NCBI GenBank assembly: GCA_027449125.1
Contig: DAIDME010000014.1
Coordinates: 79,324 to 143,323, forward strand
Source: Solirubrobacterales bacterium
Lineage (GTDB): Bacteria; Actinomycetota; Thermoleophilia; Solirubrobacterales; Solirubrobacteraceae
Direction of reading: 5' to 3'
DNA length: 64,000 nucleotides
Positions 29,511 to 43,904 of the stretch are shown here, one piece after another. The notes under the pieces were generated by a model. That model was given only the letters and a program-made list of their open reading frames with translations. It did no database searches and was not told the DNA's origin. The position numbers and the translations under genes were made by a program. The first letter of the stretch is position 1. Each line of letters opens with the position of its first letter.

Positions 29511-29546
29511 AGGGGGGTCGATTTCGGTGGGCTGATGCCTCCATTG
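29511..29546 (+). promoter_or_regulatory. Shared leader element, copy A
   Basis: aggggggtcgatt-N10-gatgcctccattg, matches 42960-42995. Confidence 0.6.
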
Positions 29547-30332
29547 ATCATGACGCCCAACGCACAACCGCAGCTGACCTCAGCCGACCTCTCGGTGCTC
29601 GGCCCGCTGGCCGAGCACCGGCTCCTGATCGTCCCCCAGCTCGCCGTCCTGCTCGGGGTGGGCGCCGCCACCGCGACGCGGCGCTGCCGGCGTCTGGCCG
29701 ACGCCCGCCTGCTGCGCCTGGAACGGACCTTCAACCGCCTGCCGGCGGCGGCATCGATCGCCGCCGCCGGCCTCCAGACGATCGGCTCGCCATTGAAGCC
29801 GCCAGCCTTCAACCTGGCCGAGTACCGCCACGACGTCGGTGTCGGCTGGCTGTGGCTGGCGGCTCGCGCCGGTCGCTTCGGCAGGCCGCGGACGCTGCTG
29901 ACAGAACGCGTGATGCAGGCTCGGGACGATCACCATGCGGGCGCGCACGGTGCCGGCGGCTCGGGCATCGGCCTGGGGGTCTTCGGCGCGGACGGGCGGG
30001 TCCGTCGCCACTATCCAGACCTGCTGATCGAGCTGCCCGGGGGCGGGAATGTGGCCGTGGAGCTCGAGCTGACGGCCAAGAGCTCGGCGCGGATGACCGC
30101 GATCATGTCTGCCTACGCGAGTGATGCACGAGTGGCCAGGATCGTCTACCTGGCCGGCAGCGAGACTGTCGCGCGTACGGTCGACCGTGCGGCGGCGGCC
30201 GCGGGCACAGCCGACCGCGTCCACATCCGGCTGTTGGCCGCAGACGGGATCGAGGGGGCGAGCGTCGCCGGCACGCGAGACGACGGGCGCGCGCTACGGT
30301 CCGCGCGCTCGCGGGCGGTGATGTGTCGATGA
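29535..30332 (+). CDS. Replication-relaxation-like protein (wHTH plus nuclease-like domain)
   Basis: N-term winged helix LLIVPQLAVLLGVGAATATRRCRRLADARLL; HYPDLLIELPGGGNVAVELELTAKS. Confidence 0.65.
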   Translation: MPPLIMTPNAQPQLTSADLSVLGPLAEHRLLIVPQLAVLLGVGAATATRRCRRLADARLLRLERTFNRLPAAASIAAAGLQTIGSPLKPPAFNLAEYRHDVGVGWLWLAARAGRFGRPRTLLTERVMQARDDHHAGAHGAGGSGIGLGVFGADGRVRRHYPDLLIELPGGGNVAVELELTAKSSARMTAIMSAYASDARVARIVYLAGSETVARTVDRAAAAAGTADRVHIRLLAADGIEGASVAGTRDDGRALRSARSRAVMCR

Positions 30333-42369: not shown

Positions 42370-42870
42370 TCACGAGCCCACCCGGGCTATCGCGGCGGCC
42401 AGCGGGGCGCGGTTGATGGCGCAGAGCGCCACCGCCAGCGCATCGGCGGCATGGTCTGGCCGCGGTGGGCCGCTCATCCCGAGCAGCCGGGCGACCATGC
42501 GCGCCACCTGCTCCTTGCCGGCGCGCCCGCTACCGCACACCGCCGACTTCACCGCCTGCGGCGTGTGCACGCGCACCGGCACGCCATGCTGACCAGCCGC
42601 CAGCATCACCACCCCGCGCGCCTGCCCGACGGCCATCGCGCTCACCACGTTGGCGCCGAAGTACAGCTCTTCAACGGCCACCTCATCGACCTCGTGGGCG
42701 ATCATCAGCTGGCCGACGTCGGCGTGTATCTCGGCGAGCCTCGCCTCCGGGGTCGCCGTGGCGGCGGTCTCGATCACGCCAAAGGCGAGCGCGTGCAAGC
42801 GCGATCCCCTGGCGCTCACCACGCCGTAGCCTGTGTTGGCGATACCGGGATCGATGCCCAAGACGATCAT
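42370..42870 (-). CDS. ruvC: Crossover junction endodeoxyribonuclease RuvC
   Basis: MIVLGIDPGIANTGYGVV, DHAADALAVALC. Confidence 0.96.
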   Translation of the reverse strand: MIVLGIDPGIANTGYGVVSARGSRLHALAFGVIETAATATPEARLAEIHADVGQLMIAHEVDEVAVEELYFGANVVSAMAVGQARGVVMLAAGQHGVPVRVHTPQAVKSAVCGSGRAGKEQVARMVARLLGMSGPPRPDHAADALAVALCAINRAPLAAAIARVGS

Positions 42871-42959: not shown

Positions 42960-42995
42960 AGGGGGGTCGATTCGAGCCGCTCGATGCCTCCATTG
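42960..42995 (+). promoter_or_regulatory. Shared leader element, copy B
   Basis: aggggggtcgatt-N10-gatgcctccattg identical flanks to 29511-29546. Confidence 0.6.
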
Positions 42996-43904
42996 GATAT
43001 GCAACCAGCGGCAGAACCCGAGCGGCTCGAACGCCTGCGTGTGCGCGCGACCGCACAGCACGGGCTCGTGACCCGCGCGCAGATGCTCGCGCTCGGGATC
43101 CCTGAGCGGACGCTCGCCGACTGGTGCAGGCGAGGTCTCCTGACCCGGGTCCGCCGGCTCCCGGGCGTCTACGCACTCGGACCGCACGCGCAGACGCCGG
43201 AGCGGACACTCTGGGCGGCTGTGCTCTACGCCGGCCCGGGCGCGATGCTCAGCCACCTGACCGCTGCGTGGTGGTACGGCCTGGTGGACTCTCCGCCCCA
43301 GGGCCTGGTGCAGGTGAGCACACCTCGACAGGTCAGCTCCCGGCCTGGGATCGAGGTGCACCCAAGGCGCCAGCTGGAACGGGCCCTGTACCGCCGGCTG
43401 CCCGTGAGCGGCGAGGCGCAGACAGTGCTCGACCTCGCGGCCACCGCCCCCGCGCTGCTGGTGCGCAAGGCCCTTGCCAAGCTCGACTACCGCCGGCGGC
43501 TGGATGTTGGGGCGCTGGCCGGGCTGTGTGGGCCAGGCGTTCCAGGCAGCGCCGCATTGCGTCAGGCGCTCGCCGAGCACGAGCCGCGGCTGGCACGCAC
43601 AAACGGGCGCCTTGAGGAGGACTTCCTGATCTGGTGCGAGCATCACGAGCTGCCGTTGCCGCGGCTCAACGTACGCGTGCACGGCATCCTCGTGGACGCC
43701 TACTGGCCAACCCCCGGCCTGGTCATCGAACTGGACGGCCACGCCAACCACTCGAGTCCGGCCCAGCTTCGCCGCGACCGCCGCAACGACCTGTTGCTGC
43801 GCGAGCATGGCCTCACCGTGCTGCGCTACGACTGGGCGCTTGTCCACGGCGAGCGGCACCGCCTGTACCGCGAGCTGGCTGGGCTGCTCGGGCGGTCTTT
43901 GTGA
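42984..43904 (+). CDS. AbiEi-type wHTH plus DUF559 (Vsr/PD-(D/E)XK-like) protein
   Basis: N-term QHGLVTRAQMLALGIPERTLADWCRRGLL; C-term LVIELDGHANHSSPAQLRRDRRNDLLLREHGLTVLRYDW. Confidence 0.82.
   Translation: MPPLDMQPAAEPERLERLRVRATAQHGLVTRAQMLALGIPERTLADWCRRGLLTRVRRLPGVYALGPHAQTPERTLWAAVLYAGPGAMLSHLTAAWWYGLVDSPPQGLVQVSTPRQVSSRPGIEVHPRRQLERALYRRLPVSGEAQTVLDLAATAPALLVRKALAKLDYRRRLDVGALAGLCGPGVPGSAALRQALAEHEPRLARTNGRLEEDFLIWCEHHELPLPRLNVRVHGILVDAYWPTPGLVIELDGHANHSSPAQLRRDRRNDLLLREHGLTVLRYDWALVHGERHRLYRELAGLLGRSL

What the first reader, a model, noticed from the sequence alone, without database searches (positions are those of the whole stretch)
29511..29552. Identical 13-N10-13 leader on two unrelated accessory genes (copy A, replication-relaxation gene)
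AGGGGGGTCGATT-N10-GATGCCTCCATTG is identical to copy B at 42960-42995, with the same 10-nt spacer length, the same ATG CCT CCA TTG start and a second in-frame ATG exactly 15 nt later in both. The proteins are otherwise unrelated. GGGGG can pair with CCTCC around the start codon, suggesting a structured translational leader, a shared promoter or a mobile-gene signature. Two copies in 64 kb predict many genome-wide.
Basis: seen in the sequence. Interest (0 to 1): 0.7.

Follow-up and report, generated by a model that had tools for sequence, protein, structure and literature searches.

The report
Sigma-factor promoter shared by DNA-handling genes
The repeated sequence in front of two unrelated genes is very probably a promoter, not an RNA leader: one copy of a fixed start signal that soil bacteria of the order Solirubrobacterales put directly in front of pilus, nuclease, DNA-pump and regulator genes, most likely read by a dedicated membrane-tethered sigma factor.

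Summary
In detail: two exact copies at 29511-29546 and 42960-42995, none expected by chance. The interpretation mostly does not. The genome has 6 copies, all directly in front of genes: one replication-relaxation/TraD operon, four AbiEi-like genes, one response regulator. The true element is GGGGGTYRA-N16-CCTC with the start codon exactly 8 nt after CCTC in 17 of 18 copies in the genus, although no start codon was in the search pattern. ATG-CCT-CCA-TTG is not the start. The same architecture, GGGGGCGA-N16/17-CCTA-N8-ATG, precedes the orthologous regulator across the family and other genes: 54 hits in 16 genomes, none with the reversed pattern. They encode Tad-pilus ATPase, AbiEi-like proteins, Y1 transposases, endonucleases, helicase and small membrane proteins. 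Both halves diverged together in the window's genus, pointing to one dedicated sigma factor and near-leaderless mRNAs. A candidate is an ECF sigma fused to an anti-sigma zinc finger and membrane tail; its own gene carries the element in two genera and is split by a 9-kb phage-like element in a third. The window genome's own sigma was not found; nothing was measured.

The parts
29513..29521 (+). copy A, upstream (-35-like) half, GGGGGTCGA
   Evidence: GGGGGTYRA constant in 18 of 18 genus copies
29537..29546 (+). copy A, downstream (-10-like) half, GCCTCCATTG (CCTC at 29538-29541)
29550..30332 (+). replication-relaxation (MobC-like) winged-helix protein, 260 aa, start at the second ATG, 8 nt after CCTC
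   Evidence: MarR_2, weak; NF041423 MobC/replication-relaxation, E 3.9e-07, far below its cut-off; orthologues with the element in L005, L006, L025
30323..31810 (+). TraD/VirD4/HerA-like DNA-translocase ATPase, second gene of the copy A operon
   Evidence: TrwB_AAD_bind, TraG-D_C; TraD; same gene pair in G012 (L193)
42962..42970 (+). copy B, upstream (-35-like) half, GGGGGTCGA
42986..42995 (+). copy B, downstream (-10-like) half, GCCTCCATTG (CCTC at 42987-42990)
42999..43904 (+). AbiEi-like winged-helix protein with a C-terminal nuclease-like region (the latter by eye), 301 aa, start at the second ATG
   Evidence: (AbiEi_4, E 2.4e-09); one of 8 paralogues, 4 of which carry the element
42370..42870 (-). 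ruvC-like gene, divergent neighbour of copy B; the same arrangement in G021 and G012
   Evidence: L017, L021; identified by reading the sequence

Best explanation
The element is a promoter of a small dedicated regulon. GGGGGTYRA is the -35-like half and GCCTCYATTR the -10-like half, with 16 nt between GGGGGTYRA and CCTC. Transcription would start at or within a nucleotide or two of the start codon, which lies 8 nt (sometimes 9) after CCTC/CCTA, so mRNAs would be leaderless. In the rest of the family the same promoter reads GGGGGCGA-N16/17-CCTA. Because both halves changed together in the window's genus, at every target class, one protein probably reads both, i.e. an alternative sigma factor. 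The best candidate is an ECF-type sigma fused to a zinc-finger anti-sigma domain, a membrane segment and a proline-rich tail; it would be held at the membrane, released (probably by proteolysis) on a signal, and would activate its own gene plus an OmpR-type response regulator, Tad-pilus genes, a DNA-pump operon and a set of nucleases and other DNA-acting proteins. Shown from sequence: the element, its fixed geometry, its targets, the joint change of both halves, and its presence in front of the sigma gene in two genera. Inferred: promoter activity, leaderless start, identity of the sigma, release by proteolysis, and any link to DNA uptake.
For: Start codon exactly 8 nt after CCTC in 17 of 18 distinct genus copies and 9 nt in the other, in genes of three unrelated families, with no start codon in the search pattern. 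Family form: 54 matches in 11 of 16 genomes against 0 for the reversed pattern. Scan of 85,462 species: 19 stretches, 12 of them in Solirubrobacterales and those in front of genes; the other 7 scattered over unrelated phyla. Orthologous response regulator: recognisable element in about 28 of 30 loci, by eye. Joint change of both halves between genus and family. Sigma gene of G208 and of G204 (matching Svornostia abyssi) preceded by the element, while none of the other sigma genes read in six genomes had it. Domains of the sigma: Sigma70_r2, Sigma70_r4_2, zf-HC2, TIGR02937. In G208 the sigma gene has a short leader with a GGAAGGAG ribosome site between element and ATG, as expected if transcription starts about 8 nt after CCTA.
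Against: No transcription start site, binding or expression data. The orthologue of the candidate sigma was not found in the window's genome: not in the 1.38 Mb of stretches searched (nearly all from this genome), and the nearest match (C63, 31% identity) has no element; at least one sigma hit of this genome was not listed. In G035 the element before the sigma gene is degenerate (AGGGCGAAC..CCTA). The family pattern included RTG, so the fixed start there is partly built in. Five of 16 genomes searched have no exact match.
Confidence: 0.72

Rival explanations
1. The G-run half is an operator for a transcription factor, for example the OmpR-type response regulator that is itself a target, overlapping an ordinary -10 region read by the housekeeping sigma factor.
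For: The response regulator is the most constant target (50 of 61 family genomes have it; element in about 28 of 30 loci), and an activator site overlapping -35 would have a fixed distance to -10.
Against: The -10-like half is CCTA/CCTC, not TANNNT, and it changed together with the G-run half in the window's genus. No direct repeat typical of OmpR-family sites is seen. The sigma gene carries the element too.
Confidence: 0.17
2. The element belongs to a regulon as described, but it is read by another sigma factor, and the membrane-tethered ECF sigma is only one more target.
For: The window genome's orthologue of this sigma was not found, although 6 copies of the element are there.
Against: None of the other sigma genes read in six genomes has the element, and autoregulation is common for ECF sigma factors (general knowledge).
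Confidence: 0.3
3. A structured RNA leader that controls translation by pairing GGGGG with CCTCC around the start codon.
For: The two strings are complementary with a G-U pair; copy A alone folds somewhat better than shuffles (z -1.85).
Against: No shared fold in five elements and z-scores from -1.85 to +0.67; one base pair is broken in the whole family form, CCTA, without compensation; the real start codon is 8 nt further on and the element would not be transcribed.
Confidence: 0.03
4. A mark of gene mobility: the ends or target of a mobile or homing gene.
For: Several targets are transposase-like, nuclease-like or AbiEi-like.
Against: The element is only on the 5' side, tied to the start codon, also on regulator and pilus genes, and orthologous copies keep their chromosomal neighbours.
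Confidence: 0.03

Closest known systems
ECF sigma factor groups ECF48/52/53, e.g. SCO4117 of Streptomyces coelicolor (PMC5826349, PMC8999054)
   Same: ECF sigma domain followed by a zinc-finger anti-sigma domain, a membrane segment and a proline-rich tail; own gene among the putative targets.
   Different: No carbohydrate-binding domain found; promoter GGGGGCGA-N16/17-CCTA instead of the putative CSGYN-17-SRHA; targets are pilus and DNA-acting genes, not secondary metabolism. Group assignment was not tested by phylogeny.
Competence sigma regulons (ComX/SigX of streptococci, SigH of staphylococci)
   Same: An alternative sigma factor with a short, highly specific promoter would co-activate pilus and DNA-processing genes.
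   Different: comEA-comEC and dprA do not carry the element, and comEC was not found in the window's genome or its sister G012.
Tad (Flp) pili for DNA uptake in Micrococcus luteus (PMC4322843, PMC8467076)
   Same: A Tad-pilus ATPase, a response regulator and an FtsK/TraD-type translocase occur together; in M. luteus mutations in such genes lowered transformability.
   Different: No transformation has been shown for these bacteria here, and no M. luteus promoter was compared.
Prophage-like interruption of sigma or competence-regulator genes (skin in sigK, prophages in comK; PMC5025042 for sigK)
   Same: In G035 the candidate sigma gene is split by an 8,981-bp element with a large serine integrase; joining the flanks gives one open frame.
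   Different: Excision was not observed, and the element is seen in one genome.

Membership tests
Promoter of an alternative (ECF-type) sigma factor | two short conserved blocks with near-constant spacing, shared by unlinked genes | tested here: met
Promoter of an alternative (ECF-type) sigma factor | fixed position upstream of coding sequences, on the coding strand | tested here: met
   17 of 18 genus copies have the start codon 8 nt after CCTC; 54 against 0 for the control in the family, RTG being part of that pattern
Promoter of an alternative (ECF-type) sigma factor | element in front of the sigma gene itself (autoregulation) | tested here: met
   G208 and G204; G035 degenerate; not found in the window's genome
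Promoter of an alternative (ECF-type) sigma factor | transcription start just downstream, dependent on that sigma | not testable with these tools
   needs 5'-end mapping and a sigma mutant
ECF48/52/53-type sigma factor (the candidate) | sigma-70 regions 2 and 4 only | tested here: met
   Sigma70_r2 above cut-off, Sigma70_r4_2 just below cut-off, TIGR02937 47.5 bits against cut-off 42.9 in G208 and 42.3 in G204
ECF48/52/53-type sigma factor (the candidate) | fused zinc-finger anti-sigma domain | tested here: met
   zf-HC2 33.3 bits against cut-off 22.2 in G204; in G208 only the HxxxCxxC residues seen by eye
ECF48/52/53-type sigma factor (the candidate) | transmembrane segment and proline-rich tail | tested here: inconclusive
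   seen by eye, no topology program used
ECF52 proper | C-terminal carbohydrate-binding domain | tested here: not met
   no such Pfam domain at E 0.001
Structured RNA leader / riboswitch | conserved base-paired structure | tested here: not met
Competence regulon | late competence genes comEA, comEC, dprA under the shared promoter | tested here: not met
   no element at these loci in up to 13 genomes
Competence regulon | pilus machinery under the shared promoter | tested here: met
   Tad/CpaF-type ATPase genes L071, L080, L117
Mobile-gene signature | element travels with genes to new sites, copies without synteny | tested here: not met
   orthologous copies keep neighbours relA/spoT, ruvC and a CcdA-like gene

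The most novel reading that the evidence does not exclude
Solirubrobacterales have a so far undescribed DNA-uptake or DNA-exchange programme, switched on by a membrane-tethered ECF sigma factor that activates itself, a response regulator, a Tad pilus, a TraD-like DNA pump and an expanding family of AbiEi-like nucleases through leaderless promoters, and which phage-like elements disable by inserting into the sigma gene.
Probability: 0.28. Interest if true: 0.85.

Novelty: new variant of a known kind. Interest (0 to 1): 0.62.

Why it matters
It turns an odd repeat into a readable regulatory code for a poorly studied, mostly uncultured order: with one short pattern the members of a regulon can be listed in many genomes. 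It ties together genes that are usually annotated as scattered accessory or defence genes (AbiEi-like, replication-relaxation, Uma2, Y1 transposases) with a pilus and a DNA pump, and names the sigma factor to delete. If the programme is DNA uptake, it would give a testable regulator of competence in a deep branch of Actinomycetota, where competence control is hardly known.

Tried and rejected
Structured leader: folding and the fate of the proposed pairs across relatives, rejected. Genus-specific pattern outside the genus: 0 of 204 other genomes of the order, which was misleading until the orthologous regulator's upstream regions were read. Two-mismatch family pattern in G035 and G204: too noisy (47 and 32 hits against 7 and 22 for the control), not used beyond one-mismatch hits. 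comEA-comEC and dprA as targets: not found. Search for the window genome's own sigma by synteny with C89 and by taking further stretches: not found. Viral contigs: the family pattern gave two coding-sequence chance hits, the genus pattern none. PADLOC hits of the helicase (PsyrT/DpdF) and of the ATPase may only reflect broad ATPase homology and were not used to call a defence system.

Full report
What was checked. The two copies are exact and not expected by chance. The window lies in a 3.17-Mb draft genome of 113 contigs. All six are directly in front of genes: the replication-relaxation/TraD operon (copy A), AbiEi-like genes (copy B, C14:64429, C93, C106) and an OmpR-type response regulator (C99). 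Four of the genome's eight AbiEi-like genes carry it.

The true element. In its genus form the element is present in 6 of 28 genomes of the genus and in none of 204 other genomes of the order. Comparing 18 distinct copies gives GGGGGTYRA, 15 variable bases, then GCCTCYATTR, while the flanks vary. The real start is ATG or GTG exactly 8 nt after CCTC in 17 of 18 copies and 9 nt in the last. No start codon had been part of these search patterns.

The family form. Reading upstream of orthologues of the response regulator in 30 loci shows, by eye in about 28, a related element: GGGGGCGA, 16 or 17 bases, CCTA, 8 bases, ATG. Searching 16 genomes for this form with a start codon 7-9 nt on gave 54 matches in 11 genomes and none for the reversed control. 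The distance from CCTA to the start codon is 8 nt in most and 9 nt in some, the latter mostly AbiEi-like genes. A stricter pattern in one genome for each of 85,462 species hit 19 stretches; 12 are Solirubrobacterales (Svornostia abyssi, Solirubrobacter soli, S. phytolaccae and metagenome bins) and lie in front of genes; the other 7 are scattered over archaea and Pseudomonadota and look like chance.

The targets. Downstream genes in the family include the response regulator, Tad/CpaF-type pilus ATPase, AbiEi-like proteins, Y1 (IS200-type) transposase relatives, alkyltransferase-like proteins, PD-(D/E)XK and Uma2 endonuclease-like proteins, a DEAD-box helicase, DUF192 (just under its cut-off), a phage-type integrase, secreted proteins, and small proteins without Pfam match, one family with a single membrane segment and a proline-rich tail. 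Most would act on DNA, on its transfer or at the surface.

Why a promoter. The geometry is that of -35 and -10 blocks with transcription starting at the start codon. The two halves differ between the window's genus and the rest of the family, and they differ together at every target class seen in the genus: the response regulator, the replication-relaxation gene and the AbiEi-like genes. That is the expected result of a change in one reader of both blocks, and is hard to square with an operator next to an ordinary -10.

Which sigma. Sigma-70 region 2 was searched in six genomes and 58 sigma genes were read. Only one group has the element upstream: G208 (51 nt before its ATG, with a ribosome site in between) and its orthologue in G204, whose element-bearing genes are identical to those of Svornostia abyssi; in G035 a degenerate copy. 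The protein has ECF regions 2 and 4, a zf-HC2 anti-sigma zinc finger (G204), a putative membrane segment and a proline-rich tail ending in EFGP. This is the plan of groups ECF48/52/53, for which release by regulated proteolysis is expected (PMC8999054; PMC5826349 for SCO4117). I did not find the orthologue in the window's genome: not in 1.38 Mb of stretches, and one sigma hit of the genome was never listed.

The interrupted sigma gene. In G035 the sigma gene is split by 8,981 bp carrying a large serine integrase and a ClpP-like head-protease relative. The two flanks share AAGGTSAAC, and joining them gives one 452-residue frame, 44% identical over 429 residues to the G204 sigma. This resembles elements in sigK and comK; whether it excises is unknown.

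What it may be for. A Tad pilus, a TraD/FtsK-type pump, a response regulator and nucleases suggest DNA uptake or exchange; in Micrococcus luteus, Tad pili are needed for transformation and a mutation in an FtsK-type translocase beside a tad cluster lowers it (PMC4322843, PMC8467076). Against a classical competence regulon, comEA-comEC and dprA lack the element and comEC was not found in the window's genome or in G012. I therefore hold the promoter as likely, the sigma as probable, and DNA uptake as open.

Limits. Everything rests on sequence. Several identifications are by eye (membrane segments, ruvC, the 28 of 30 count). Draft genomes may miss genes. The family pattern contains a start codon, so the strongest unbiased evidence for the fixed start is the genus set.

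Noticed in passing
L299:10183-19163 (G035:C1): An 8,981-bp phage-like element with a large serine integrase splits the candidate sigma gene at AAGGTSAAC; joining the flanks gives one open frame.
   Followed up: partly
L070, L076, L078, L084, L105 (C-termini); L267, L282 (sigma C-termini): Small single-membrane-segment, proline-rich proteins of the regulon and the candidate sigma factor end in similar tails (EFGP, EFGF, EFRP, EFAPFG), as if a common partner or protease recognised them.
   Followed up: no
G000 and G012, whole genomes: No ComEC (PF03772) match in the window's genome or its single-contig sister, while the 11 other genomes searched each have one.
   Followed up: partly
L117:60-2081, L269:2723-3933 (G204): The Tad-pilus ATPase gene directly behind the element appears frameshifted in this Svornostia abyssi-like record.
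   Followed up: no
L120:14-1200 (G110): The gene of the small proline-rich membrane protein lies divergent to genes that read as rpsF and ssb, with the element between.
   Followed up: no
L085, L086, L091, L133, L201, L206: Recurrent targets of roughly 100-120 residues; those tested had no Pfam match.
   Followed up: no
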